Part shown: positions 708 to 61,587 of the stretch, piece by piece
Numbering within the stretch: position 1 is the first letter of the stretch
How the letters are laid out: each line of letters starts with the position of its first letter
Assembly (NCBI RefSeq): GCF_003073045.1
Contig: NC_037600.1
Location: 10,280,758-10,344,757, forward strand
Reading direction: 5' to 3'
DNA: 64,000 nt
From: Pomacea canaliculata
Lineage: Eukaryota > Mollusca > Gastropoda > Architaenioglossa > Ampullariidae
The notes under the pieces: generated by a model
Seen by the model: the letters and a program-made list of their open reading frames with translations, nothing else
Databases searched by the model: none
What the model was told of the DNA's origin: nothing
Program-made: the position numbers and the translations under genes

Positions 708-2619
708 TTGTTAATTACCAGCGCTTTCTTGGCACGAGCCTCTGGGAAACCCATGTCAGTCAACTGTTTGAGTGCAGCATAATCAATTTTGGGTTGCTGC
801 AAAGGTTCACTTAGCATATCTTGCAGCACACACATAGTTCATACGAACACATTTATGCACACATGCAAGAACACACACACACAAATATATATAAATACAC
901 ACACACCCAGAGGTGCAGACTATTTGATAATAGTGAAATAATATCTTCTAGTAAAACTATGACTTTTGCTTTTAAAAGAGTTATTGGTATAGTGATTGCC
1001 ATCGTAGGACCTACTTAACAAACTGCCCTTTGTCTCTTGCATGTCAATTTCCACATGCTAGTTAACAATGTATGCAAGTTCAAGGAAATGAATCAAATGT
1101 GGTTACTGATGGGAATGATATTGAAGAATCAACATAGCAAAAGATACCATTAGTAAAAGTTTATACAAATATAAATTTTTGCAAACACACCTTCAGCCTG
1201 CTTGAAGATCTTGGCAGCTGATGGGTTGAGGCAAAGAATTCTTTGAGAAGCTTCTATAAGAGAAATAAGGATTCGACGCAGCTCTGTCTGAAACTGAGCA
1301 CCAATGGAAAAAGTGGCTCATTTACTAATTTATTGACACAACCATGTTTATATGGTAAGATTAAAATCATATGAATGACCAGGCAAAACTGAAGAATGAG
1401 GGGAGGGGTAAAAAACGAGTGACACGAAGAAGTCTTAACATGCTAGATCTGGGCTATTTACTGCTTAATTTTAACTGTTATTGCTTTAATAAGCAATGAC
1501 TACATGCCACATAACAATTTTAGTCAATAGATGGACCCAGTGTAATAAAAAGCAGTATCAGAGCATTGTCATATTTTTCTTTTACTCATGAGGTGCCCAG
1601 TGCATCTGTGAAGAGATCTTTTAAATAAATCTGCAAGTTATTCACATTTTTTGGTCAGAGAGGAAAATAATACCTGTTAATTCGATTCTTACTTTACTTT
1701 AATTACAATGCATCAAAATTCAAGTAAACAGAAACTGCAAAATGAACATATTTATGTAATGCCATATATACATCTACTGAGTTTGTTGGTTCCTCTTCTT
1801 TAACACTGTATGGAATTTTGGGAAGGTGTGACGTCAATTTTCGTATTGTGCTGAAGTCTGGAGTTCGTCGATCATCCTTCTGCACAAAAAGAATTTATGA
1901 AAGATATCAAAACACAACCAAAAGTCTGTGTGTGTTTTTGAACCTTTCAAAATAGTAGTGAACATTTATACTATCAAAACATCAATAGTATATTTAATAC
2001 AGTCTAAAACATCAATATTTATTCAAATGTGAAAGTATACTGAAAGTTAAAAATTTTATTATGATAGCGCTGACAGATAGATGACAACATACGGTAGGTG
2101 TAAATAAGTATCATTGCCAGTAACTTACGTGTTTCTCTGACCCTTCAAATGCTGGTGGCAAGCGTCTTTTCAGAAGTAGAAGTTCATCTGAAGCAAATCA
2201 ACAATTTATGATACCTGGAAATATGTAATATGACTGCTTTTTCCCCTTACATTGGTTAGTCACTAAAATAATATGAAAAGATATGAATTTTTATTACATT
2301 CGTGTCTTAAAAGCGATAAAAATAGTGTAATCTCTAAAATGTACAAATTCAATGAAATATTACCATTTTCTTTGACGCCCTCTTGAGAAATAGTCATAGA
2401 TTCACTTAGTGTCTTTGCAAGACGCACATTCACAAGTTTATGATACAAAGAAGTCTTTACACTGTCTCCTGAACGTGAAAAATGTTCCATGGCGACGATC
2501 TTAACTTTATCTACAGTCCACTCGCGCTGAAGATCGGTGATAAAGTCTCGACCGTCCCAACTAGTAATTCGGACCTTCATGTCGTGGGGTGGAAACAATT
2601 GCGTATCTGTCACCACCAT
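708..2619 (-). CDS. UBAC1: UBAC1, ubiquitin-associated domain-containing protein 1 (5' part)
   Basis: UBAC1 (KPC2) is the adaptor subunit of the cytoplasmic KPC ubiquitin ligase; it binds ubiquitin chains and the proteasome. Five coding exons are seen on the minus strand: 2364-2619, 2129-2187, 1772-1879, 1191-1293 and 708-819. All have GT-AG borders and continuous phase. Exon 1 encodes the ubiquitin-like N-terminus (YHKLVNVRLAKTLSESMTI). Exon 2 gives DELLLLKRRLPP. Exon 4 gives FQTELRRILISLIEASQRI, very close to the vertebrate FQTELRKILVSLIEVAQK. Exon 5 enters the first UBA domain (LKQLTDMGFPEARAKKALVIN). The start at 2619 is the first Met; Met at about 2580, just before the ubiquitin-like strand, is an alternative. 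Exon 5 may end at 719 if the nearer GTAATT donor is used, but 708 (GTAAGG) keeps the expected residues. The second UBA domain and the stop lie beyond the window edge. Assignment rests on recalled family sequence. Confidence 0.87.
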
Positions 2620-10163: not shown

Positions 10164-13100
10164 TTAATCGTCGCCATCTATATCGACGCTACACTCACTG
10201 GAACTGCTATCGTTGTCGCTTCTGCTGCTGTTGATGAGTACGTGGGTGACGGGGCTCTCGGACGCGCGGCAGTGGTTGTGGTTGCCATCTCCTACCAGCC
10301 TCTCGATGGAGGTGAAGGCGGAGCACTTGCTGCTGCTGCTGCTGCTGCTACTATTATTACTGCCCACAACCATCGACTTCGCTTCTGGTTGTGCATGCGA
10401 AGAGGCGCCGGAGAGGCTAGACACCTTAGTGGGTGATGTCTCCCGCACGGGAGGAGCGTGCAGGAGGAGGGGAGGGTTGCTCGTCGTCGGTGATGTCTTC
10501 AAGACCGACGTCGGTGACGGAGGAGCAAGGAGTGGGGAAGACGTCATGGAAAGCAAGGCTGGGGGCTCGCAGGGAGTGGGCATGAAGCCCCGGATGGAGT
10601 TGGGATGGATCTGCGGGGTGTGGAGGTCAATAGGCGAGTAACGAAGGAGAAACGGGGTGGATGTGTGCAACAGCTTCAGTCTCTGCTGTCGCCGCCACTT
10701 GGCCCGCCGGTTAGAGAACCACACCTGGAAGGTAGAACCACAGCACACAATGTTAATAAGTGTCTCTTTGAGTCGTTCGCTTTTTAAATGCTTTGAGCTC
10801 GCTATCCTGTGAGAGAATACATTTGTACGTGCTATAATAATAATAAAAATCATCATCATCGTCGTCGTCGTTGTCAACATCATCATTGCCGTTGTGCATA
10901 TATGATTACCACCCATATTCCCAAGTCCACGATCCTAAGGAATCAGCACCTTTCCGTTTCAGACATGCCTGCTTACAAATATTATCATGCACAGAGGGAG
11001 GTCAACAACATTGAAGTCAGGGCTGTTTAGTTAACCAACTAGTGGACTAGGCGTTGGACCGGTTTACTGTGCCTACCTGAACCCTTGCCTCGGACAGTCC
11101 AGTCCTGCTGGCCAGCGCCTCGCGGACCGCCACCCCGGGGTAGTGGGTCTTCTCGAACTCTTTCTCCAGCACCTGTAGCTGCTCCGCCCGGAATGTTGTC
11201 CGTGACCTGCGCAGCTTCTGTGGGTTGTCGTCATATTGGTCACAAGTGCTGCCGATGGGTTCTGCGACACGCAGGGGCAGACAACGCGTTAGGATGTGTT
11301 GATGAGTAAGATGCAATAAGGCGCCACTTAAAGACCCTTGTTTATCAATTTTTTTTTTTTTTTTTTTTCCCTTTATTTTTTCGTTTGTTTTTTTTTTTCT
11401 TTATTTTTTTTTCGTTTTTGTTTTTTTGTTTTTTGTTTTTTGTTGTTGTTTTTTTTTTTGTTTTGTTTTGTTCACTTGTATTCTTTTGTCCATTTTTCTT
11501 TTTTGTTTTCTTTTCCGTATCTAGGGGGACCACAACAAGACCATCAAAGGTATAGAAATATAAATTGTAGACAATTTGATTGTCATTAACAGTATGTCAT
11601 ATACATTTTTTAAATTCACACTGCTTTTTTACAACTACAGCAGATAACAAAGTTACATGAGGTAAATTTACTGAAAATACAAGTATAAAGAGAACACGCA
11701 TACACACTATTTTAGGAACTTATCTCTCCCTCTAACCTTTGAGGACAAATAGAACTGTGCCCCTATTGGGAAATACGTTATTGCCCACGTGATTATATAT
11801 TCAACATACCGTCATCCGTGTCTACGTCCTTGTCACTGAGAGAGATCGCGTGATCTTCGCTTGGACAAGAAGACGTAATTTCGGCGTTGCAAGAACTCTG
11901 TAAGGGAGGCGACTTCAAGAAGGGCGTGCCAGGAAACGGCAGAGGAGGGGCGGTAACTGGAAGCGCTGCAAGCCAAGGGCGGTAAAAAGGATGAAGAACT
12001 TGCGAGGCCATTTTGGCGTACTCGGAGGCTGCGCGTTCGGCGGCTCTGTTACGTAATATCCGGTTGATAGAGCTGACGCTCGGCACGTTTGACTGGCTGC
12101 ATACACCTGTGAAAGGGAAAACACTCTGAGAATAGAAAGAAAGAAACAAAGAAAGAAGCGGAACTTGACGATTCTGATAGAAAGACAGAGAAGAAGGTCA
12201 GGCGACAGGACGCATGAACCTCTCTATTAAACAGCATAATTAAACGTTTTTGTTTGATTTTTTTTTTTTTTACCTTCAGAGAGAAGTCTGTCTCGAATCT
12301 CCCACGCAAACATCGTCGGGTTGTCTCTCTTGAGCTCTTCGATCTTCGCCACGACACTAGGGGTCGCCACTTTGGGTTTGCTCCCGCCAATGCTGTTGCA
12401 GCGTAACGACAGTGGGTCATATAGTCTACCTGCAGAGACAGAGTCAGGGAACTCTTAGGTCACATCCCATGTCAGACACCAAAGAGGGAGGACTGAACAA
12501 TGTTCGTAGACCAAACTATTGAAGTAACAGTTCGTTATTTTATCTGTGGTGAACTGCATTTCATTATGAACTTAAAAAATCTTCAGGCTGTCTAATTAAA
12601 AAACAAACACAACGACTCTTAGTTCATCAAACAAGTAGAGCTGTCTAAAAGTTTGATACACGATTATTTCGCGTTTAATTATTAATGATTACCACCAGAA
12701 TTATAATCAAATTAGTCGAAAATTATCTCAAAAACCTTGATCAGTGCACCCGACAAGTTCATTAAAAACATGTACGAAAATTAAGCAGCAGCAGCCACGT
12801 GCATTGCAACTGTTATGACCGTTTCTTTTTTAAATTCTACAAATATGGAAATAAACAGGAGCAAGATGAAACGATAAAGCAGAGAACCGTGACGTCGACA
12901 CGAAGCATGCGCACGTGAGGGCGTATCAATTGCAGCTACGCGCATTACTTGCTTGTTTGCAAAAGCTCTCCTGCTCTCGCCACCCTTATTCTGCTGTCTC
13001 TTTTCCAGCACTCACCCTACTCACCTTCCTACCCCCCTGACCCCGCTCCCAACCTCTCATTCTTCATCCGTCTTCTCCCTCCCTTTCGTCCTTTCTATGC

Positions 13101-30000: not shown

Positions 30001-32604
30001 TCGGGTGGCCGGCGATTTCTGGCCCCAGGATCTGCTCCAGGAGGTTGAGAAGCCGCTCGTTGCTCCACAGGGCGCGAAAAGACTACCAAAAAAATAAATT
30101 AATTATTATTTTGGGATTTTTTCCTACAGTCACCCTCCAGCGGTTTATATGTTTTTGATGATGTGTAAGGAATGAAGACAACATACAATTGGTTTTCTCG
30201 TGTGCGGACGTTTTGCCGACGGACGTTTCACCGCCGGACGTTTCGGAGCCGGACGTTTTGTCGACTGGACGTTTCCGCTGGACGTTTCGGGTCGGACCGT
30301 TTTTGCCGACCGCGTTTCGCCGCATTATGTCAGAGAGAAGAGAGAGAGCTTACTTACTTCTCAAAGAATGAAAGTAACTACTAGATACACAATAATTCTT
30401 TATTTCAAACAAAATTGACACACAGACATTCACAGACAGTTCACTTTGATTGTCACAGATTATGCGCAAACTAGCTTTGAGAAAAAACATTGATCAATGC
30501 CGAGAGAAATGTGAGCTAACGTTCACATGAGGAGGGATAGTGAGAGAAGAGTTCACTGATACATTGAATCCAATGGCGAGAGAAATGTGTGAGCTAAGGG
30601 GCGTCCCACACTTGACTTCGGCTAAAGGTCCCGCGTGAAATGCCCCGAAATGAAGTGTCCCGCGCCGAAACGTCCGGCGGTAAAGCGCCGTCGGCAAAAG
30701 ACTCCGACTCCGAAACGTCACGGTGCGAAACGTCCGATCGCAAAACGTCCGGCTCCGAAAACGTCCGGCAGGCAAACGTCCGGCGGCGAAAAGTCCGTGT
30801 ACCGGTTTTCTGATGTATATAAATAACGCAGAGTATGCCCAAGAAGTATGTCCTGACGTGTAAACATTGTAGGGTGCACATAAGGGATACTTTATGATGT
30901 GTAAAAATATTGGCTACGCATAAGTGATACTTGCAGACGTGTAAGCAACACAGACTACATACGGCAGGTATTTGCTGGTATTTAAACATCAGGATGTTGG
31001 CGCCTTTGAACTCTTCTTCAAGTTTTGTAAGCCGTTGAAACAATCCGTACTCCTTGTACAGATCTGTCATCGAAAGTGGATAAGCATTACAGTCAGTGCA
31101 CACTTGTAAACACTTACATACACACACAGAACAGCAGTACGTTAAAGCAGTAAATGCTGAATTCAAACTGTACCTACTTTTCACTTTGCCAGCTTTGTAC
31201 AGCTTCTGGGCCAGCTCCTCCACCATGACCTCGATGTCCCGCCGACATGGCTCCAGTTCTTCCGGTGTGAAAAAGTTACGGACTACAATGTAGCCCTACA
31301 GCAATCAAGGGAAGAGAAAGAAAGAAAAATAAATTGTAGAGATGACTCTAATCAGTTTCATTAGTTTCCTCCTTACTTTTGCCTAGATGTCCTCCTCCTC
31401 CTCCTCCTCCACCACCTCCTCATCATCATCATCGATCGTCATCACCATCATCAACAACAACAAAAACGACAAAAACATTAGCAATTTCAACATCTTATAT
31501 TTTATACACTTATTACGCCGTCGTGTGAAGCCTGAAGTAGTAACTTTTACAAGCAAAATATTCCTGCACAATAACGTAAACTGAAATGCAAAAATGCATA
31601 AAAATAAACAGCAAACTATATGCAAGAGAAATCTATCTGCATAGTTTCAAAATATCATTTTGTTTAAAGAAATCTCCACGCTAGGAAAGCGACGAAACAT
31701 CAGTTAATAATATTGCTCTTCTCATGTTATTCGACGTGACAACTGTCATCGTAACTTTAATTTCTGCAGAGCAGAAATGTGACAATGGCTAGTCACGCTT
31801 AATTAATACACCGCTGGCTTTTTAATGTCAACCAGGGCTCGTTGCAAATTGCCCAGAGGCAAATCATCCTCCGCGGGCTGAGTATGTGCATATCGGTGGT
31901 TACGATAGTTATGAACACGGGACAGACACGAGCAGCTGCCTCGTAGCCATACAGTTCAAGGACGAAAGGCGACCCTCGCTATTTTCATACCTGCATTTCC
32001 TTGACTACTGCGCATGAGCATTTGAACACACAACGACAAATCTTCAAAAAGAAGCAGAAATAACTAACTGCTTCGAAAGGAAATTGTAAACGCGAAAAGA
32101 GAGCAGTGCAGTCCAATTTATAAAATATCATCGCAAATCAAGCAAGGAGTGTTTGGTGGTAAACAATCACGAGAAGGTAAATGAATGCCGGCATGCAAAG
32201 CGATCCGCCGCAGATATGCACCCTAAAAATAAAAAAAGAACACTTTTAAAAATTACATCCCAAACAAGATGTGGCCGCCTTCCCAGACCACGAATTGAAG
32301 TCATAACAATCATCACCTAATCTACCAGCAAAGACGAAAAATAACTGCGACCAGTCACACTCTAGATTTGGGAGCTAGAGTCAGTTTCAAGCAGAGCCAG
32401 CCAGGATCCGTCCATTAGATCAGTGACTCACTGCGTTCGCAACTGCATACATAAAATAAAGCGTAACAATCTTGCAATCTAACAATCTTAGATTTTAAAG
32501 AACTAATTTATCAGTTTACCAACCTCATCGAAAGATTTCTGATTTCCCGAGTTAAGGGGAAGTTGACCCTGCCTTGGGTAAAGTCCACGGAGACTGCGTG
32601 GGGG
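27080..32604 (-). CDS. Phytanoyl-CoA dioxygenase (PhyH) family protein
   Basis: Fe(II)/2-oxoglutarate-dependent oxygenase; the family includes phytanoyl-CoA 2-hydroxylase, but the substrate here is unknown. Exons on the minus strand: 32520-32604, 31178-31295, 30963-31063, 29941-30082, 29211-29305, 28668-28773, 28273-28357, 27691-27889 and 27080-27199. From 31295 onward phases close and give 321 residues. Landmarks in order: GYIVVRNFFTPEELEPCRRD; GHPTWNLRTKTP; the metal-binding HxD motif in NIPWHQDSAY, split by an intron; TAWIPFLDAIPENGCMQ; the distal His in LFHNLTPHRS; and the 2-oxoglutarate-binding Arg region VRWSVDLRWQSP. The HxD and distal His are intact, so the enzyme looks active. The first listed exon (NSPHAVSVDFTQGRVNFPLT) looks like the usual N-terminus. 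A short exon between it and 31295 is probably missed, since the residues just before GYIVV are absent. The intron after 29211 appears to use a GC donor. No peroxisomal targeting tail is evident (ends PTAQA). Confidence 0.9.
29546..29724. mobile_element. Non-autonomous DNA transposon (MITE), hAT-like ends
   Basis: The left end CAGGGCTTCTGCT and right end AGCAGAGAAGCCCTG are imperfect inverted repeats. The flanks share ATATC on both sides (29541-29545 and 29725-29729). Length is 179 bp, with no coding capacity. It sits in an intron of the PhyH gene. The CAGGG-type ends suggest hAT, but the shared flank is shorter than the 8 bp typical of that group. Confidence 0.6.
30195..30805. mobile_element. 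Foldback-like element: inverted arms built of short tandem subrepeats
   Basis: The left arm (about 30195-30325) holds repeated CGGACGTTT units spaced roughly 15 bases apart. The right arm (about 30655-30805) holds the same units in reverse complement (AAACGTCCG). A unique-looking 330 bp centre separates them. The whole lies in the PhyH intron between 30083 and 30962. This is the structure of Foldback-type non-autonomous elements; no transposase is present. Confidence 0.6.
31389..31450. repeat. TCC/TCA microsatellite
   Basis: Short run of TCC units passing into TCA units in a PhyH intron. Confidence 0.85.
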
Positions 32605-38904: not shown

Positions 38905-39056
38905 CGGCGTAGTAGCGTTTACACCAGATACAATGATGACTTTAATCATTTTTTTTCTCTTTTCGATATCTAATCGATCATTCACAATGATTGTGCAAGC
39001 GATGACCGTCACAGCAAACACTGGATATCACTTGTAATACACAAAAGCAGCACACG
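38905..39056. repeat. Dispersed repeat, partial copy 3
   Basis: Shares the GTTTACACCAGATACAATG box, the following TCGATATC box and the TTGTAATACACA-type stretch with copies 1 and 2. It ends about 60 bp before the minisatellite starts. Confidence 0.6.
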
Positions 39057-39116
39057 CACCGCTGACCACTCCCGCTCTTGATAGCCTAGCCCTGTACACG
39101 CAGCCAATCGGCATGA

Positions 39117-41483
39117 AAGGTGGTGGGTCGGCCAGCTTACCACTGGGCAAGAGCACCACCCAGCTGCCTGGGGTGGTGCAAGTTCAGAAAGGCGGCCCTG
39201 GGTGCAAAGCAGTGGTGGTCGGCCTGCTTTACCACTGGCAAGAGCACACCCCTGCTGCAAGCAGGGTGGGTGGAGTGGGTGGGTCGGCTAGCTTTACCAC
39301 CTGGGCAAGAGCACCACCCTGGCTGCAAGGCAGGGTGGGGGTCCTACTTTACACTGGCAAGAGCACCACCCTGGCTGCAAGGCAGGTGGTGGGTCGGCCT
39401 AGCTTTACCACTGGCAAGAGCACCACCCTGGCTGCAAGCAGGTGGGTGGGTCGGCTAGCTTTACCACTGGGCAAGCACCACCCTGGTGCAAGGCAGGGTG
39501 GTGGGTCGCTAGCTTTACCACTGGGCAAGAGCACCACCTGGCTGCAAGGCAGGGTGGGTGGGTCGGCCTAGCTTTACCCACTGGGCAAGAGCACCACCCT
39601 GGCTGCAAGGCAGGTGGTGGGTCGCCTGCTTTACACTGGGAAGCAGCACACCTGCTGCAAGGCAGGGTGGGAGGGTCGGCCGCGGCAAGAGGCACTAGGG
39701 CAAGGCAAGGGTGTGGGTCGGCCTTTAGCTTTTCACTGGGCACCACTGGGCTTCTGTGGTGGTCGGCTAGCTTTACCACTGGGCAAGGCACGTGGCGTGG
39801 GGGTCGGCCTAGCTTACTGGGCAAGAGCACCACCCTGGCTGCAAGGCAGGTGGGTGGGTCGGCCTAGCTTTACCACTGGGCAAGACACCACCCTGGCTGC
39901 AAGCAGGTGGGCAGGTGGGTCGCCTACTTACACTGGCAGAGCCACACCTCTGTGCAACACGGCCTAGCTTACCACTGGGCAAGAGCACACCCTGGTCTGC
40001 AAGGCAGGGTGGTGTGGGTCGGCCTAGCTTTACCACTGGGCAAGAGCACCACCCTGGCTGCAAGGCAGGTGGGTGGTCGGCCTAGCTTTACACTGGGCAG
40101 GCACCACCCTGGCTGCAGCAGGTGGGTGGTCGGCCTAGCTTTACCACTGGGCAAGAGCACCACCCTGGCTGCAAGGCAGGGTGGTGGGTCGGCCTAGCTT
40201 TACCACTGGCAAGAGCACCACCCTGGCTGCAAGCAGGGTGGTGGGTCGGCCTAGCTTTACCATGGGCAAGAGCACCACCCTGGCTGCAAGGCAGGGTGGG
40301 TGGGTCGGCCTAGCTTTACCACTGGGCAAGAGCACCACCCTGGCTGCAAGCAGGGTGGGTGGCGTCGGCCTAGCTTTTACCACTGGGCAAAGAGCACCAC
40401 CCTGGCTGCAAGGCAGGGTGGGTGGTCGCCTAGCTTTACCACTGGCAAGAGCACCCACCCTGCTGCAAGCAGGGTGGGTGTCGGCACTTTACCACTGGGC
40501 AGAGCACCACCCTGGCTGCAAGGCAGGGTGGGTGGGTCGGCCTAGCTTTACCACTGGCAAGAAGCACCACCCTGGCTGCAAGGGTGGGTGGGTCGGCCTA
40601 GCTTACCATGGGCAAGAGCACACCCTGCTGCAAGCAGGGTGGGTGGGTCGGCCTAGCTTTACCACTGGGCAAGAGCACCACCCTGCTGCAAGCAGGGTGG
40701 GTGGCGGCCTAGCTTTACCACTGGGCAAGGCACCACCCTGGCTGCAAGGGCAGGGTGGTGGTCGGCCTAGCTTTACACTGGGCAAGAGCACCACCCTGGC
40801 TGCAAGGCAGGGTGGGGGTCGGCCTAGCTTTACCATGGCAAGAGCACCACCCTGGCTGCAAGGCAGGGTGGGTGGGTCGGCCTAGCTTTACCACTGGGCA
40901 AGAGCACCACCCTGGCTGCAAGGCAGGGTGGGTGGGTCGGCCTAGCTTTACCACTGGGCAAGAGCACCACCCTGGCTGCAAGGCAGGGTGGGTGGGTCGG
41001 CCTAGCTTTACCACTGGGCAAGAGCACCACCCTGGCTGCAAGGCAGGGTGGGTGGGTCGGCCTAGCTTTACCACTGGCAAGGCACCACCCTGGCTGCAAG
41101 GCAGTGGGTGGGTCGGCCTAGCTTTACAACACTGGGCAAGAGCACACCCTGCTGCAAGGCAGGTGGTGGTCGCCTAGCTTTACCACTGGGCAAGAGCACC
41201 ACCCTGGCTGCAAGGGCAGGGTGGGTCGGCCTAGCTTTACCACTGGGCACAGAGCCCACCCTGGCTGCAATGCAGGGTGGGTGGGTCGGCCTAGCTTTAC
41301 CACTGGGCAGAGCACCACCCTGGCTGCAAGGCAGGGTGGGGGCCCTGCTTTACCATGGGTGGCTGCAAGTGCCGGTGGTCGCCTAGCTTTACACTGGGCA
41401 GAGCCCACCCTGGCTGCAGGCAGGGTGGGTGGGTCGGCTAGCTTTACCACTGGCAAGAGCAGGCTGCAGGCCCAGCTACTGGT
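39117..41483. repeat. Minisatellite, 60-bp unit, about 40 copies
   Basis: Head-to-tail array. The cleanest units, at 40861-41060, are exactly 60 bp and identical. Each contains CTTTACCACTGGGCAAGAGC and then CACCACCCTGGCTGCAAGGC. Other units differ mainly by one-base losses in G, C and T doublets and triplets. On the minus strand the unit reads as a 20-residue repeat (RVVLLPSGKARPTHPPCLAA). Confidence 0.97.
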
Positions 41484-41513
41484 GGCTGCTGGCTAGCTTT
41501 ATGGGAATGCTGA

Positions 41514-44500
41514 CATGGCTGCATGGCTGGGCTGATGGCTGATGTCTGATGGTGATGGTGATGGCTTGCCTACTGACTGCACCTGAAGATGGCCATGGCC
41601 CTGCTGGCTATGGCTCTGATGGTGGCTGATGGTGATTTGCTGATGGTGCCTATGAGCTGATGTGACTGATGGCTGATGGCTGATGATGCTGAGATAGGCT
41701 GATGGCCTGATGGCTGATGGCTGATGCTGCTGATGGCTTGATGGCTGATTGGCTGATGGCTGATGGCTGATGGCTGATTGGTGTGGTGATGCTGATGGCT
41801 GATGATGGCTATGCTGATGGCTGATGGCTGATGGCTGCTGGCTGATGGCTGATGGTGAGGCTGATGGGCTGATGCTGATGGGGTGATGGCTGATGGCTGA
41901 TGGCTGATGGCTGATGCTGATGGCTGATGGCTGATGGCTGATGGCGATGGCTGATGGCTGATGGCTGATGGCTGATGGCTGCTGATGGCTGATGGCTGAT
42001 GGCTGATGGCTGATGGCTGATGGCTGATGGGCTGATGGCTGATGCTGATGGTGATGATGGCTGATGGCTGATGCTGATGCTGATGGCTGATGGCTGATGC
42101 TGATAGGCTGATGGCTGATGGCTGATGGCTGATGGCTGATGCTGATGGCTGATGGCTGATGGCTGATGGCTGATGGTGATGGCTGATGGCTGATGGATGG
42201 CTGATGGCTGATGGCTGATGGCTGATGGCTGATGGCTGATGGCTGATGGCTGATGGCTGATGGCTGATGGCTGATGGCTGATGGCTGATGGCTGATGGCT
42301 GATGGCTGATGGCTGATGGCTGATGGCTGATTGGCTGATGGCTGATGGCTGATGGCTGATGGCTGATGGCTGATGCTGATGGCTGATGGCTGATGGCTGA
42401 ATGGCTGATGCTGATGGCTGATGGCTTGATGGCTGATGGCTGATGGCTGATGGCTGATGCTGCTGATGGCTGAATGGCTGATGGCTGATGGCTGATGGCT
42501 GATGGCTGATGGCTGATGGCTGATGGCTGATGGCTGATGGCTGATGGCTGATGGCTGATGGCTGATGGCTGATGGCTGATGGCTGATGGCTGATGGCTGA
42601 TGGGCTGATGGCTGATGGCTGATGGCTGATGGCTGATGGCTGATGGCTGATGGCTGATGGCTTGATGGCTGATGATGCTGATGGCTGATGGCTGATGGCT
42701 GATGGCTGATGCTGATGGCTGATGGCTGATGGCTGATGGCTGATGGCTGATGGCTGATGGCTGATGGCTGATGGCTGATGGCTGATGGCTGATGGCTGAT
42801 GGCTGATGGCTGATGGCTGATGGCTGATGGTGATGGCTGATGGCTGATGGCTGATGGCTGATGGCTGATGGCTGATGGCTGATGGCTGATGGCTGATGGC
42901 TGATGGCTGATGGCTGATGGCTGATGGCTGATGGCTGATGGCTGATGGCTGATGGCTGATGGCTGATGGCTGATGGCTGATGGCTGATGGCTGATGGCTG
43001 ATGGCTGATGGCTGATGGCTGATGGCTGATGGCTGATGGCTGATGGCTGATGCTGATGGCTGATGGCTGATGGCTGATGGCTGATGGCTGATGGCTGATG
43101 GCTGATGGCTGATGGCTGATGGCTGATGGGCTGATGGCTGATGGCTGATGGCTGATGGCTGATGGCTGATGGCTGATGGCTGTGGCTGATGGCTGATGGC
43201 TGATGGCTGATGGCTGATGGCTGATGGCTGATGGCTGATGGCTGATGGCTGATGGCTGATGGCTGATGGCTGATGGCTGATGGCTGATGGCTGATGGCTG
43301 ATGGCTGATGGCTGATGGCTGATGGCTGATGGCTGATGGCTGATGGCTGATGGCTGATGGCTGATGGCTGATGGCTGATGGCTGATGGCTGATGGCTGAT
43401 GCTGATGGCTGATGGCTGATGGCTGATGGCTTGATGGCTGATGGCTGATGGCTGATGGTGGTGATGGCTGTGGCTGATGGCTGATGGCTGATGCTGATGG
43501 CTGATGGCTGATGGCTGATGGCTGGTGATGGCTGATGGCTGATGGCTGATGGCTGATGGCTGATGGCTGATGGCTGATGGCTGATGGCTGATGGCTGATG
43601 GCTGATGGCTGATGGCTGATGGCTGATGGCTGATGGCTGATGCTGATGGCTGATGCTGATGGCTGATGGCTGATGGCTGATGGCTGATGGCTGATGGCTG
43701 ATGGCTGATGGCTGATGGTCTGATGCTGATTGGCTGATGGCTGATGGTGATGGCTGATGGCTGATGGCTGATGGCTGATGGCTGATGGTGATGCTGATGG
43801 CTGATGGCTGATGGCTGATGGCTGATGGCTGATGGCTGATGGCTGATGGCTGATGGTGATGGCTGATGGCTGATGGCTGATGGCTGATGGCTGATGGCTG
43901 ATGGCTGATGGCTGATGGCTGATGGCTGAGCTGGCTGATGGCTGATGGCTGATGGCTGATGATGGCTGATGGCTGATGGCTGATGGCTGATGGCTGAATG
44001 ATGGCTGATGGCTGATGGCTGATGGCTGATGGCTGATGGCTGATGGCTGATGGCTGATGGCTGATGGCTGATGGACTGATGGCTGATGGCTGATGGCTGA
44101 TGGCTGATGGCTGATGTGGGCTGATGGCTGATGGCTGATGGCTGATGGCTGATGGCTGATGGCTGATGGCTGATGGCTGATGGCTGATGGCTGATGGATG
44201 GCTGATGGCTGATGGCTGATGGCTGATGGCTGATGGCTGATGGCTGATGGTATGATGGCTGATGGCTGATGCTGATGGCTGATGGCTGATGTGATGGCTG
44301 ATGGCTGATGGCTGGCTGATGGATGGCTGATGGCTGATGGCTGATGGCTGATGGTCTGATGGCTGATGGCTGATGGCTGATGGCTGATGGCTGATGGCTG
44401 ATGGCTGATGGCTGATGGCTGATGGCTGATGGCTGATGGCTGATGGCTGATGGCTGATGGCTGATGGGCTGATGGCTGATGGCTGAGGCTGATGGCTGAT

Positions 44501-45186
44501 GGCTGATGGCTGATGGAGGCTGATGGCTGATGGCTGATGGCTGATGGCTGATGGCTGATGGCTGATGGCTGATGGCTGATGCTGATGCTGATGGCTGATG
44601 GTGATGGCTGATGGCTGATGGCTGATGGCTGATGGCTGATGGCTGATGGCTGATGGCTGATGGCTGATGGCTGATGCTGATGGCTGATGGCTGAGTGAAT
44701 GCTGATGGCTGATGGCTGATGGCTGATGGCTGATGGCTGATGGCTGATGGCTGATGGCTGATGGCTGATGGTGATGGCTGATGGCTATGGCTGATGGCTG
44801 ATGGGCTGATGGCTGATGGCTGATGGCTGATGGCTGATGGCTGATGGTGATGGCTGATGGTGATGGCTGATGGCTGATGGCTGATGGCTGATGCTGATGG
44901 CTGATGGCTGATGGCTGATGGCTGATGGCTGATGGCTGATGGCTGATGGCTGATGGCTGATGGCTGATGGCTGATGGCTGATGGCTGAATGGCTGATGGC
45001 TGATGGCTGATGGCTGATGCTGATGGCTGATGGCTGATGGCTGATGGCTGATGGCTGGCTGATGGCTGATGCTGCTGATGGCTGGATGGCTGATGGCTGT
45101 GCTGATGGCTGATGGGCCTGAATGCTGAATCTGATGGCTGATTTATCATGATGGTCTGATGTGCTGATGGCTGATGGCTGATGGTG
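41514..45186. repeat. Heptanucleotide satellite, unit GCTGATG
   Basis: About 520 units of the 7-mer GCTGATG cover 3.7 kb, with scattered one- or two-base losses and rare gains. Because 7 is not a multiple of 3, every frame cycles through the same seven codons. On the minus strand these are all sense codons (ISHQPSA), which produces a 1249-codon open frame with no biological meaning. Confidence 0.97.
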
Positions 45187-45632
45187 ATCATTCTAATAAT
45201 CCAACAAACATCATCATGCATCATCAAAACAACAACATCAATAATCAACCAACCATCAATTCAACATTAACAACAACCATCAACAACCTTCATCAACAAC
45301 ATCATTAATAATCATCAACAACAATCATCATCATCATTAATCATCATCATCATCATCAATCATCATTAATTATCAACAACATAATAAGTACTATCAACAA
45401 CTATCATCATCAACTATCTTCAACAACAATCATCAACATCAACCATCAATAACAACCATCATCAACAACCATCATCAACAACCATCATCAACTATCATCA
45501 TCAACTATCATCATCAACTATCTTCAACAACAATCATCAACATCAACCATCAACATCAACCATCAATAACAACCATCATCAACAACGATCATCAACTATC
45601 ATCATCAACTATCATCATTAACTATCATCAGT
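45187..45632. repeat. ATC/AAC-rich trinucleotide tract
   Basis: Imperfect runs of ATC and AAC triplets with longer internal repeats (CAACAACCATCATCAACTAT type). It abuts the 7-bp array directly, making a 6.5 kb compound satellite block. Confidence 0.9.
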
Positions 45633-56526: not shown

Positions 56527-59467
56527 TTATTCTCGAACTGCAAATTTTCGCTGTGGGTACAAGCGCTCTTTGCGCTGCTGTTTCTTTGTCTTAAGGGACA
56601 GCTCATATGATGTCAGGGCTCGTCGCAGGGCACGTGTCTTTTTGGGTCGAAGATCCTTAGGACGGTACTTCTTGGGGCGGTAGAATTTTCTCAAGTTCTC
56701 CTTTTTGGTCTGGTTCATTACAGTCAAAAGACGAGCAATAGACTTGCGCACGGTGTGGCTGAGAATATAGAAGGTTAAACAAGTAAATAAATTGCTGAAC
56801 CTAGAGTAACACAGCATAATGCATAAAAATAGCTGACATCCCAAAGGTAATATAAGTCACAAATTTTATGAATGAGTTACAAAGAGATGAATTTTTCAGT
56901 TACTTTTCCAAACACATTGTGTTCTGCTATACATTTTGATAAGCCTTAGTCCTGCTGCCAACATGCAACAAGACGAGCAAACCACAAAGTGATTCCAGTG
57001 ATTATAAATAACAGTAATTTTACACCAAAACAAGAAAAGCTCTTACATCTTGGCAAGCTTGGAAGCTGCTCCCCCTGTTACTTTAGCAACGCGAAGGGAC
57101 TGCAGCTCCTGCAAAAAAAATAATGCACCTGATTCAAGCCTAGGAAGACAGATGCTATGCACAAATTTTACCAAGCAGACATGAATTGTATGGTACTGCT
57201 CATTGTAGCCACAGCAAGGTAAAGCAATCTATGTCCTTGAATGGAGCATTTCTTGACTGGAATCCTCAGGGGAAAAGGAGAGACGCGAGGCCAAAGAAGA
57301 CTTGCAAAAGAACAGCAGAGAGCAAGGCAAAGGATGCTGAACTACATGATTTAAATCAAGTGTGGGAGAGAGAGAAAGGGCTTCCTTAAAACCCAGTCCG
57401 CTGGTGAGGAATTGTTTTGGCCTGAAGCTCCTTCAGGAGTAGCAAGGAAAAACCTATAAACATTTGCTCAGATCACAAGCCACTCGTATAAGATTTAGCA
57501 TACATTTCCAATAATACTATATGAAGAAAAGTAAAATGAAGTGACTTAACACTGACCTGCTTTAGGTCCTCGAGCTGCTTCATCAGCTCATCCTTTTTCT
57601 TTCCACGTAGATCTTTAGCCTTGACCTTGCCCTGTCAATAAATAAAAGCACATTTTGATCATATACACCATATATACTGTACAAAATAAAAGTAGACATG
57701 CAAAGCTGAAGGCTGCCTTTACTGATCATGCACTGCTGTGTAAAGCACAAGATGGTGAAACTTAACTGCTGTTATTCTTATGCTGTGAAAGTGGGTCAGT
57801 CCTATCGATCCATTTAAGCAATTCATCAGCCATTAGTGATGTCAGTGACTGCATTTCTCATCATCCCCACTACACGAAACTACTCAATAGTCTCCAAACT
57901 CTAGAAACCATAAGTAAAGTTCACACATTATGACTCGGTTACTTTCATTTATCAACCACTAGTCAAGCATATCTTAGCTCTGTTCTACTCGAAGGCAAGC
58001 TTAAATGACCCATGTAATATTATTCTCAGATGCCACTTTACATTCCATTGTGGAGATGTTTACAGAGCCTAAGCACACACAGACACAGAAACAATGTATT
58101 GGAAGTTACTTTGGACACAAGCCATATCGATCCATTTAACACTGACTGTTACTGCATGTTTCCCACTCACTAATGCTTTTGCAATTCATTTGTCTAAAAC
58201 ATGACTGTTTCTGAGCTTTCAGACACATTTTCCTTGTGTTATTTTCTGCAGAGTAGCACTAGGAGAATGGTTATCAACAAAACTCGAGACATTCGTCAGG
58301 GACATCCATCAGTCAATTGCAAAATTAACAGTAAACAAAAGTATATGCATACTTAACTTAACTGGAATGACATAAGTACAACTGTTTATTTACTTCTGGC
58401 TAAATGACGTGTACGAGAAACCAAAGGACGAATGATTATTAAAAATGAATGTTTCTGGGAATTCTCTATGCAATGAAAGTGGGTCAGTCCTATCGATCCA
58501 TTTAAGCAATTCATCAGCCATTAGTGATGTCAGTGACTGCATTTCTCATCATCCCCACTACACGAAACTACTCAATTGAGTCTCCAAACCCTGGAAACCA
58601 TAAGTAAAGGTTACACATTATGACTAGGCTACCTATTAACAGGGTTCCCAGGGATCAGGGATGGTGCCAAAAAAGGACCTTAAAAGGACCTTTCATGCAT
58701 CCGTAAGGACCTAAGTGACAGTCATCAATGCTTATGTTTTTCTCTTGTGTGGTCGGAAGATGTATTATTTATGATCTGTGGTCTTCTCTATGAAATACAT
58801 GTATTTCTAGCTTAAATGACTTAAAAAGTGTCCTTAGTGTAATAACCGTTTTCTCACATAACACTTTACATTTCCATTTTCTAGAGAAGAGAGAGAGAGA
58901 GAAATGTATTACAGAGCCTAAACACACACAGACCGAAACAACGTATTGGAAATTACTTTGGACACGAGCCATATCGACTCATTTAAGAAATCAATTTAAC
59001 ACTGATAGAGTTACTGCATGCTTCCCACTCACTAATGCTTTTGCAATTTATTCGTCTAAAAATTTACTGTTTCTGAGCTTTCAGCTACACTATCCTCGTG
59101 TTATTCTCTGCCAAAAGATGAATGATTAAGTTTCTAGAAATTCTCGAGCTAAAATTTATTGACAAGTTTCTGTTAATCTTCTGAAAATAAGTCCTCAAGA
59201 TATAAGTAATATCAACTTTTGATAAGCAGATGTAGTATTCAACAAAAAAAACAATCTTAACTTATATGGAAAGCTCTGCCTACGATAGCCAACACTAATT
59301 CTGGAAAACATAAAAGGTAGTTAGAATAATGATTAATAAGAAATTGCTATTGGTATGACATGAAATTTAAATCGAGCACTCAAAAATAACAGTATTTCTC
59401 TTTGTTAAAGATTGAGTGTAGTGAGATGATAAATGATTATAGAACACTTAAAGATATCACCCACCAT
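56527..59467 (-). CDS. RPL35: 60S ribosomal protein L35 (uL29)
   Basis: Component of the large ribosomal subunit at the polypeptide exit tunnel. Exons on the minus strand: 59465-59467 (the ATG alone), 57557-57631, 57047-57108 and 56527-56758. The product is 123 residues, the same as human RPL35. Exon 2 encodes [20 protein letters not shown]. Exon 3 encodes [20 protein letters not shown]. Exon 4 encodes [20 protein letters not shown] to [18 protein letters not shown], nearly identical to the vertebrate protein. A first exon that ends right after the ATG is known in vertebrate RPL35. Here I place it at 59467 because the ATG is followed by a GTGGGT donor and preceded by a pyrimidine-rich start. 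An AATAAA (plus strand TTTATT, 56493-56498) lies just past the stop. Intron 1 contains an internal duplication; intron 2 contains a LINE tail. Confidence 0.97.
57186..57390 (+). mobile_element. LINE C-terminal fragment in RPL35 intron 2
   Basis: The plus-strand frame reads [20 protein letters not shown] followed by an acidic helix and a stop at 57389. It matches the recalled tail motif W.PQGKR.RGRPK.TWRR of non-LTR retrotransposon ORF2 proteins. It is antisense to RPL35. Only the tail is present. Confidence 0.65.
57785..59110. repeat. Segmental duplication inside RPL35 intron 1
   Basis: Copy 1 (about 57785-58255) and copy 2 (about 58474-59110) share long near-identical stretches, for example GTGGGTCAGTCCTATCGATC at 57790 and 58479 and TTACAGAGCCTAA at 58069 and 58909. 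The offset grows from 689 to 840 bp because copy 2 holds about 150 extra bases near 58640-58790. I saw no snoRNA box pair that I trust. Confidence 0.85.
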
Positions 59468-59791
59468 GTTGTATGGAGAAACCGGAAGAAGAGACTTGCA
59501 AACCGGGATAAATATACCACAAGTCTCACAGTTCGTCCTGTAAAAGGTCAGCGCAGTCAAATGTTTAAATTTTATGTAATAAAAAGTGTTAAGTTTTAAA
59601 TTCTCTTCAAAAGATCAATTACTTCAATCATATTAAAATTTTTCAAAGAATGAGTCTCTTGTCAGTGTTACGATACGTGTATCGGTGTATCTTAACTGTG
59701 GTAAGAATTGAGCTTCCGGGGTGTGTTCAGCGTGAGCCAAAGATTGTCAACGAGCATACAAAGTGCCATAAGTTACTAAACATATTTAGTG
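59468..59791. promoter_or_regulatory. Shared promoter between RPL35 (minus) and ARPC5 (plus)
   Basis: Only about 320 bp separate the two start codons. On the minus strand, GTCTCTTCTTCCGGTTTCTC at about 59478-59497 combines a 5' terminal oligopyrimidine-type start with an ETS-like CTTCCGG, usual for ribosomal protein genes. The ARPC5 side has GCTTCCGGGG near 59713. Confidence 0.6.
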
Positions 59792-61587
59792 ATGGCAAAG
59801 AACACAGGAGCTAGTAAATTTAGAAAGGTGGACGTAGACCAATATGACGAAGAAAGATTTCAAGACGATGATACAGCCACAGATACTGGAGATCAAGGAC
59901 CAAACGACACGGAAGTTAGCAACTTGTTAGCTCAATATCCTTTCTGTGTTGTGAACACTTTGATAAGTTAGTATTCAGCTATTTTAATTGTGAGCATTTT
60001 GACTCGATTATCAGCTCATTTAATATTATGCAAACTCAAAATACATAGCTTAATTTAACATGCAATTGTTATGTTTGACTGTCAAATGAGGACAATACCA
60101 GTCACTCTAGTTGGCTATTAAACGTTTCATTTTGCGTTCGGCTTCTTTGTAGATTATTTTCTATATAGTATAGAAGTGTATAGTAATTTTTGTTTAGAAA
60201 ATATCACCGAATGAATATATAAACAATGGAAATCTAGTATTTATTTTCTGTTCTTCGTTTTGCCTGTTGTATTTTCCTATTTATGTATCATAGGTGAAAA
60301 CGTTTAGATGATTGCTTTTGTATGGACGGACACTCTTAGTTTATAATAAAGTAGTAGAGGTCGTATTGTTGATGTCAGTCGTATTTAGCTATGTACATTA
60401 GAAAATCATACACACAGTCGGTCACATACTAACACATAATCTTAATGTGATTATATCCTAGAAACATTTTGTATTTCTTCTCTCAGTTAGTAATTAGCAA
60501 TCTGTTATATAAAGGCCTTAACCAAAAGCACAGGTAAACACCAGGAAGCCTTGTTACTTGTGTTGAACAGTGCTCCACTGGGTTCCAAAAGTCAAGCACT
60601 GAAGGTACATGAAATTCACTGCAGTATAAAATTGTATCAAATCTTTGGTGAAAGCATAATAAAAATGGCATGAAAGTGTCATTTAATGCAAAATGTTTTT
60701 CTCCAGGACCCTTCTTAGCAAAGCTTTTTATTTTTTTTAATTTTGTGAGAATGTTTGTAGGTGAAGCTGGAAGGAAACAAGCACATCATATTTAAGGAAT
60801 TACTTTGAAAAAATTTTGATAGTATAAATTCTCCGCTACTGTTTTGCTTGTGTTTGGCTCAGGATCGAGCAGCAAACACAGTACTGCGGGTGTTGACATC
60901 ATTCAAGTCTGCAGACGTGGAACGGGCCGTGAAGTCGTTGGATAGCAAGAATATTGACACTCTAATGAAATATATTTACCGGGGATTCGAGTCACCTTCT
61001 GATGGTAGCAGTGCAGTATTGCTGACCTGGCATGAAAAGGTGGGAATTGCTTTATCTAAGTGCATACTAATTTACAACATATTGCATGGTTTTAATCTTA
61101 ACCTAAGGTTTACATAGTGTGATATATACATAAATAGTAGAGAATAAATTAAAACATGTTGTAAGTGGAAGCATTCTTACATTTGTGAACATATATCTGC
61201 TTGCACATAATTGATGTCCCTTTTTTTTTTCTTTTGGTCTCTGTTGCTGATTAGCTATACTTTACAGGCCTTCAAGGTGATGCCTTGGCCTTTAAAACTG
61301 CCATAGCCCCTTTTAGCTCCCATAGAACTTTCTATGGCTGTCATTTTTGTTTTTCAGTAGGGGATGGTTTTAAAGGATGTGCTTATTTCATTTGGTCTTC
61401 TCATCCTCAGATGCACCCCTTTATAATAGCTTTGTGTTATGTAGGGATACTTTGTAAGAAAAAAAACATGTGAATGATCTTGGTTCTGTAATGTTTCGTT
61501 AAATGGTAATTGCTTTCATAACAGGTATTTGCTGTTGGGGGACTTGGCAGCATAGTGCGAGTGTTGACAGATCGGAAAAGAGTATGA
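59792..61587 (+). CDS. ARPC5: Actin-related protein 2/3 complex subunit 5
   Basis: p16 subunit of the Arp2/3 complex, which nucleates branched actin filaments in the cytoplasm. Exons 59792-59934, 60532-60604, 60863-61039 and 61525-61587 give 151 residues, the length of human ARPC5. Exon 1 encodes [20 protein letters not shown] plus an acidic linker. Exon 2 encodes [20 protein letters not shown]. Exon 3 encodes [20 protein letters not shown] to [20 protein letters not shown]. Exon 4 encodes [20 protein letters not shown] and the stop. Intron 1 is not GT-AG: it starts ATATCCTTT and ends with a CCTTAAC branch site and AC, which restores the family sequence LLAQ-GKHQEA exactly. Introns 2 and 3 are GT-AG. 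The gene runs head to head with RPL35. Confidence 0.97.
59935..60531 (+). other. U12-type AT-AC intron of ARPC5
   Basis: The 5' splice site is ATATCCTTT, the exact U12 consensus. GCCTTAAC at 60515-60522 matches the U12 branch motif TTCCTTRAY closely and lies about 10 bases before the terminal AC at 60530-60531. There is no GT donor near the required junction. Joining 59934 to 60532 gives GCT CAA GGT AAA, in phase with the conserved protein. Confidence 0.88.

What the first reader, a model, noticed from the sequence alone, without database searches (positions are those of the whole stretch)
59935..60531. Minor-spliceosome AT-AC intron in ARPC5
The intron has the exact U12 5' site ATATCCTTT, a CCTTAAC branch motif about 10 bases from the 3' end, and AT...AC termini. 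Phase and the conserved ARPC5 protein demand exactly these borders. AT-AC introns are rare, and this implies a working minor spliceosome in the species. I recall minor introns in vertebrate ARPC5-family genes, so this may be an ancient conserved intron; I could not verify that.
Basis: partly seen in the sequence, partly recalled or inferred. Interest (0 to 1): 0.7.

Follow-up and report, generated by a model that had tools for sequence, protein, structure and literature searches.

The report
AT-AC minor intron in snail ARPC5
The first intron of a snail's ARPC5 gene, which encodes a small subunit of an actin-building complex, carries the signals of the rare minor splicing machinery; human genes of this family are also reported to contain such an intron, so this is a clear but ordinary example.

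Summary
Window 59792-61587 (+) encodes a complete 151-aa ARPC5 protein (P16-Arc, E 6.4e-52) in four exons. Intron 1 (59935-60531, 597 nt, phase 2) has AT-AC ends, the U12 5' site ATATCCTTT and a CCTTAAC branch motif whose second A lies 10 nt before the last intron base. At fixed borders the joint chance of both motifs is about 1e-8. Of 17 in-frame border choices scored (of 74), this one fits the protein family best: 176.4 bits against 151.2-169.9. The other two introns are GT-AG. The same genome holds U12 (117.1 bits) and U6atac (94.7 bits); the intron's positions +4 to +10 pair with U6atac over 7 bases. U11 and U4atac requests did not complete. The species is almost certainly Pomacea canaliculata: contig C6's length equals the published scaffold N50 to the base. 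Human ARPC5 and ARPC5L are reported as minor-intron genes, and molluscs as relatively rich in minor introns. So this is a well-formed member of a known kind. One untested extra: strong U2-like sites overlap its 3' end.

The parts
59792..59934 (+). ARPC5 coding exon 1 (ATG at 59792), ends in phase 2
   Evidence: Pfam P16-Arc on the joined product
59935..60531 (+). ARPC5 intron 1, U12-type, AT-AC, 597 nt
59935..59943 (+). U12-type 5' splice site ATATCCTTT; +4 to +10 (59938-59944) complementary to U6atac positions 10-16
60516..60522 (+). U12-type branch motif CCTTAAC; second A at 60521, 10 nt before the last intron base
60532..60604 (+). ARPC5 coding exon 2 (73 nt)
60605..60862 (+). ARPC5 intron 2, ordinary GT-AG (U2-type)
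60863..61039 (+). ARPC5 coding exon 3
61040..61524 (+). ARPC5 intron 3, ordinary GT-AG (U2-type)
61525..61587 (+). ARPC5 coding exon 4 with TGA stop
60487..60533 (+). possible U2-type decoy exon (47 nt): U2-like 3' site TTCTTCTCTCAG before 60487 and U2-like 5' site CAG|GTAAAC at 60533/60534; overlaps the U12 branch site and 3' end. Function untested

Best explanation
Intron 1 of the apple snail ARPC5 gene is an ordinary, well-formed U12-type intron of the AT-AC subtype. By established minor-spliceosome biology, U11 and then U6atac recognise ATATCCTTT, U12 pairs with CCTTAAC and bulges the branch A, and AT-AC excision joins CA|A GGT to restore the Gln-Gly of the protein. Shown: motifs, borders, frame, protein family, U12 and U6atac genes in the same genome, and complementarity of the intron to both. 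Inferred: that the minor spliceosome actually removes it, and that it is the same ancestral intron as the minor introns reported in human ARPC5 and ARPC5L.
For: Motifs, spacing and phase; joint chance about 1e-8 at fixed borders; best Pfam score of 17 border choices; full-length U12 snRNA, 117.1 bits against a cut-off of 53, its first 30 letters identical to the consensus; full-length U6atac, 94.7 bits against a cut-off of 33; 7 contiguous pairs between intron +4..+10 and U6atac 10-16, and CCTTA complementary to U12 19-23; neither family matched in the tool's 14 control genomes (their identity is not given); human ARPC5 minor intron very sensitive to U6atac loss and human ARPC5L U12-type intron; molluscs relatively minor-intron rich; all four minor snRNAs reported in another mollusc, the giant squid.
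Against: No transcript was available. U11 and U4atac were requested but not answered. The two bases before the branch core are GG rather than the TT that I recall as usual, so pairing with U12 is somewhat shorter. 40 GT/GC-AG choices also keep the frame; 12 of these were scored and all fit the family worse (155.9-169.9 bits), the other 28 were not scored.
Confidence: 0.95

Rival explanations
1. The stretch is spliced by the major spliceosome with a GT-AG pair nearby, and the U12-like motifs are coincidence.
For: 40 of 74 in-frame, stop-free border combinations in the searched range are GT/GC-AG; a strong U2-like acceptor (11.0 bits) lies at 60487; one U2 donor (59828) spliced straight to exon 3 keeps the frame, giving a 91-aa protein.
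Against: The motif pair at the borders has a chance of about 1e-8. Twelve of the 40 GT/GC-AG alternatives were scored and all fit the family worse (155.9-169.9 against 176.4 bits). Four chosen U2 donors joined to the four best-scoring U2 acceptors, each read two ways, give an early stop in 32 of 32 products.
Confidence: 0.02
2. Twintron-like switch: the intron is normally removed by the minor spliceosome, but U2-type sites at 60487 and 60534 compete and give frameshifted or truncated mRNA, tuning ARPC5 output to minor-spliceosome activity.
For: U2-like 3' site of 11.0 bits, above all five U2 acceptors of ARPC5 and RPL35 here (4.0-10.8); a best site this good occurs in 2.8% of 1000 Markov sequences; CAG|GTAAAC 5' site 7.6 bits. 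32 of 32 products from four donors and four acceptors end in early stops. In human RNPC3 patients, cryptic U2 sites near the ARPC5L U12 intron are activated.
Against: The splice matrices were typed from recall, and 2.8% is before allowing for the several sites looked at. The best U2 donor inside the intron is no better than chance (74.5% of random sequences reach it). The chance of the 60534 donor was not computed. No transcript or cross-species evidence. In a mouse/human study, cryptic-exon use was not affected by minor snRNA inhibition (PMC8034651, passage).
Confidence: 0.07
3. An AT-AC intron spliced by the major spliceosome, as in some sodium-channel genes.
For: AT-AC ends alone do not prove the U12 pathway (PMC2831892, passages).
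Against: Those introns are described as having G at +5; here +5 is C, and the whole 9-base U12 5' site is present with a branch motif.
Confidence: 0.01

Closest known systems
Minor intron of human ARPC5 (PMC3728624) and U12-type intron of human ARPC5L (PMC3958305)
   Same: Same gene family, minor class
   Different: Position, phase and AT-AC versus GT-AG subtype of the human introns were not seen; whether the snail has further P16-Arc copies is unknown (request not answered)
U12-type AT-AC introns in general
   Same: ATATCCTTT 5' site, CCTTRAC branch motif close to the 3' end, AT-AC ends, phase other than 0
   Different: The two bases upstream of the branch core (GG) depart from the TT that I recall as usual
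U12/U2 twintrons (prospero, PRMT1; PMC3564746, passages)
   Same: U2-like sites lie within and overlapping the U12 intron
   Different: Use of those sites is not shown, and the U2 products examined here are truncated

Membership tests
U12-type (minor) spliceosomal intron, AT-AC subtype | 5' splice site [A/G]TATCCTTT at the exon border | tested here: met
   ATATCCTTT at 59935-59943
U12-type (minor) spliceosomal intron, AT-AC subtype | Branch motif CCTTRAC a short distance before the 3' end | tested here: met
   CCTTAAC at 60516-60522, second A 10 nt before the last intron base
U12-type (minor) spliceosomal intron, AT-AC subtype | AT...AC terminal dinucleotides with reading frame kept | tested here: met
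U12-type (minor) spliceosomal intron, AT-AC subtype | Removed by the U11/U12/U4atac/U6atac spliceosome in the organism | not testable with these tools
   needs RNA-seq or snRNA depletion
U12-type (minor) spliceosomal intron, AT-AC subtype | U12 snRNA present in the same genome | tested here: met
   117.1 bits, gathering score 53, 1-151 of 151; a second copy at 66.3 bits. 44 of 31040 first-look candidates were scored
U12-type (minor) spliceosomal intron, AT-AC subtype | U6atac snRNA present in the same genome and complementary to the 5' splice site | tested here: met
   94.7 bits, gathering score 33, 1-126 of 126; intron +4..+10 pairs with U6atac 10-16
U12-type (minor) spliceosomal intron, AT-AC subtype | U11, U4atac and CENATAC present in the same genome | not tested
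   The genome search busy each time: U11 nine requests, U4atac three (57, 98, 108), CENATAC two (60, 100)
U12-type (minor) spliceosomal intron, AT-AC subtype | Same intron position in orthologues | tested here: inconclusive
   human ARPC5 and ARPC5L are reported to have minor introns, but their positions were not seen
ARPC5 (Arp2/3 complex 16 kDa subunit) | P16-Arc domain over the whole protein | tested here: met
   PF04699 176.4 bits, profile 1-150 of 150; ARPC5 chain 1k8k_G E 8.3e-52 over 1-151
U12/U2 twintron | Both intron types spliced as alternatives | not testable with these tools
   only sequence scores

The most novel reading that the evidence does not exclude
The snail ARPC5 minor intron is a poised twintron: a 47-nt U2-type decoy exon (60487-60533) overlaps the U12 branch site and 3' splice site, so that major and minor spliceosomes exclude each other and a drop in minor-spliceosome activity diverts ARPC5 pre-mRNA into truncated, decaying transcripts, linking actin-branching capacity to U6atac levels.
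Probability: 0.06. Interest if true: 0.45.

Novelty: new member of a known kind. Interest (0 to 1): 0.2.

Why it matters
It gives a clean molluscan example of a minor intron in a gene family where humans also have one, and ties it to U12 and U6atac genes in the same genome. The value is mainly for annotation: gene finders that assume GT-AG ends can misplace these borders. A position match with human ARPC5 and ARPC5L would date the intron to before the protostome-deuterostome split.

Tried and rejected
GT-AG alternatives at intron 1: 74 combinations enumerated; the 17 with a product within 6 residues of 151 were scored against P16-Arc (ten, the other seven, done after the report was first sent back); the 16 others are worse.

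U2-only splice products, 38 in all: four donors by four acceptors, each read two ways, 32 of 32 with early stops; four donor-to-exon-3 skips, of which one (59827 to 60863) stays open and gives a 91-aa protein; intron 1 retention and exon-2 skipping from the U12 donor, both with early stops. The four donors were not the four best by score: the intron's donors at 60294, 60374 and 60447 were left out because any of them would keep the in-frame stop at 59969-59971 (inference).

Relatives elsewhere: ARPC5 in viral contigs (23 pattern stretches, 0 confirmed) and in prokaryote genome contigs (62 stretches, 0 confirmed); neither collection is expected to hold animals. Rfam on the whole window: 0 matches at gathering score.

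Literature: ARPC5 with 'AT-AC intron', 0 papers. RPL35, ARPC5L, bidirectional (any two): 110 papers, 10 listed; titles and starts of abstracts show nothing on the gene pair, and none was opened. PMC2846911: none of five terms (actin-related, Lottia, Aplysia, mollus, Capitella) occurs. ARPC5 does not occur in the main text of PMC3564746, PMC8034651 or PMC8280824.

An indexing slip gave -7.9 bits for the RPL35 intron 1 donor; the corrected value is 7.9.

I left the odds as they were.

Full report
What is there. On the + strand, window 59792-61587 encodes a complete 151-residue protein in four exons (59792-59934, 60532-60604, 60863-61039, 61525-61587). It matches Pfam P16-Arc over the whole profile (176.4 bits, E 6.4e-52) and the ARPC5 chain of solved Arp2/3 complexes over its whole length (1k8k_G, E 8.3e-52; the ARPC5-like chain 6yw6_G, E 4e-49). 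Introns 2 and 3 are GT-AG. Intron 1 is not.

The intron. Intron 1 runs 59935-60531, 597 nt, phase 2. It begins ATATCCTTT and ends GGCCTTAACCAAAAGCAC. The second A of CCTTAAC lies 10 nt before the last intron base. Each motif alone is unremarkable in 64 kb: RTATCCTTT 1 seen against 1.26 expected, CCTTRAC 11 against 14.3. Under the window's dinucleotide model, finding the first at a fixed donor and the second within nine offsets of a fixed acceptor has a chance of about 1e-8. Of 7 looser U12-type donor matches on both strands, only this one has a suitable branch motif within 5 kb downstream.

Are the borders forced? Not strictly. Among donors ending 59792-60099 and acceptors starting 60300-60604, 74 combinations keep an open frame to the native stop: 34 AT-AC, 28 GT-AG and 12 GC-AG. 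I scored the 17 whose product is within 6 residues of 151. The AT-AC pair of the finding reached 176.4 bits; the 16 others (12 GT/GC-AG, 4 further AT-AC) reached 151.2-169.9. As a U2 donor the site scores -13.1 bits, which mostly reflects its AT instead of GT; the five U2 donors of ARPC5 and RPL35 in this window score 5.3 to 8.9 (matrices recalled).

The machinery. The window lies in a 440,159,624-base genome of 24 contigs. A U12 snRNA is present: 117.1 bits over model positions 1-151, and a second, weaker copy at 66.3 bits about 2.8 kb away (repeated by cmscan on the two loci). The strong copy keeps the consensus 5' segment AUGCCUUAAACUAAUGAGUAAGGAAAAUAA. U6atac is present once: 94.7 bits over 1-126. 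Only the best first-look candidates were scored (44 of 31040 and 46 of 24610), so copy numbers are lower bounds; the tool's 14 control genomes gave no match to either family. Intron positions +4 to +10 (TCCTTTC) are complementary to U6atac 10-16, and CCTTA of the branch motif to U12 19-23. U11, U4atac and CENATAC were requested and never answered. CENATAC is reported to promote splicing of AT-AN minor introns (PMC8280824, passages).

The organism. Contig C6 is 31,531,291 bases long. The P. canaliculata genome paper gives a scaffold N50 of exactly 31,531,291 (PMC6129957, passages). Its table gives 440,071,717 assembled bases, 87,907 fewer than here, and 14 large scaffolds against 24 contigs here; gap letters and small unplaced pieces could explain that, which I did not check.

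What is known. Human ARPC5 has a minor intron that is very sensitive to U6atac loss (PMC3728624, passage). Human ARPC5L has a U12-type intron, mis-spliced to cryptic U2 sites in RNPC3 patients (PMC3958305, passages and one section). Molluscs are named among protostomes with relatively many minor introns, and AT-AC makes up about 26% of human minor introns (PMC10639083, passages and section 24). All four minor snRNAs are reported in the giant squid (PMC6962438, passage). I found no paper naming ARPC5 together with 'AT-AC intron' (0 papers); supplementary tables could not be read, so the snail intron may well be catalogued already.

A possible extra. The end of the intron carries a strong U2-like acceptor before 60487 (11.0 bits; a best site this good occurs in 2.8% of 1000 Markov sequences), and the U12 acceptor is followed by a U2-like donor, CAG|GTAAAC at 60534 (7.6 bits). 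Together they outline a 47-nt decoy exon over the U12 branch site. Joining four U2 donors to the four best U2 acceptors gives early stops in 32 of 32 products; but one donor (59828) spliced straight to exon 3 keeps the frame and would make a 91-aa protein. So most U2-type outcomes looked at are unproductive, not every one. The test is post hoc, the matrices are recalled, the U2 donors inside the intron are no better than chance, and one study saw no effect on cryptic-exon use when minor snRNAs were inhibited (PMC8034651, passage). I keep it as a low-probability novel reading.

Verdict. The finding is correct and the interpretation sound. It is a textbook member of a known class in a gene family where the class is already known in humans. 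Interest is low to moderate.

Noticed in passing
56527-59467 (-): RPL35 (uL29) gene lies head to head with ARPC5: ATG at 59465-59467, exons 57557-57631, 57047-57108 and 56527-56758; joined product 123 aa (one of four acceptor choices for the last exon), Pfam Ribosomal_L29 E 2.6e-19. The two start codons are about 325 bp apart. I recall that human RPL35 and ARPC5L are also head-to-head neighbours on 9q33.3; if so, this is a very old shared-promoter pair.
   Followed up: partly
2266-2619 (-) and 30597-31295 (-), with 56527-61587: A UBAC1-type ubiquitin-like domain (PF23326, E 6.6e-12) and an ORF that by eye resembles PHYHD1 (no Pfam match) share the window with RPL35 and ARPC5. I recall the four human counterparts on 9q33-q34, which would suggest conserved linkage.
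   Followed up: no
10167-12197 (-): Part of a homeobox gene: homeodomain ORF at 11050-11400 (E 1.1e-14). Neighbouring ORFs at 10167-10934 and 11796-12197 by eye hold the end of the homeodomain and of a paired domain, but have no Pfam match; possibly an eyegone-type Pax gene (recalled likeness only).
   Followed up: partly
39000-45260: Two long minisatellite-like arrays, one with a 'HHPGCKAGWVGRPSFTTGQE' reading and one with an 'SHQPSAI' reading open for 991-1253 codons in all three minus-strand frames.
   Followed up: no
57787-57940 and 58468-58630: A near-duplicate block of about 150 bp sits twice inside RPL35 intron 1 (by eye).
   Followed up: no
L002:1501-1651 (G000:C6:27472237-27472387): Second, diverged U12 snRNA-like copy (66.3 bits) about 2.8 kb from the strong one, with the 5' branch-pairing segment kept but several broken pairs elsewhere; a pseudogene or a variant.
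   Followed up: partly
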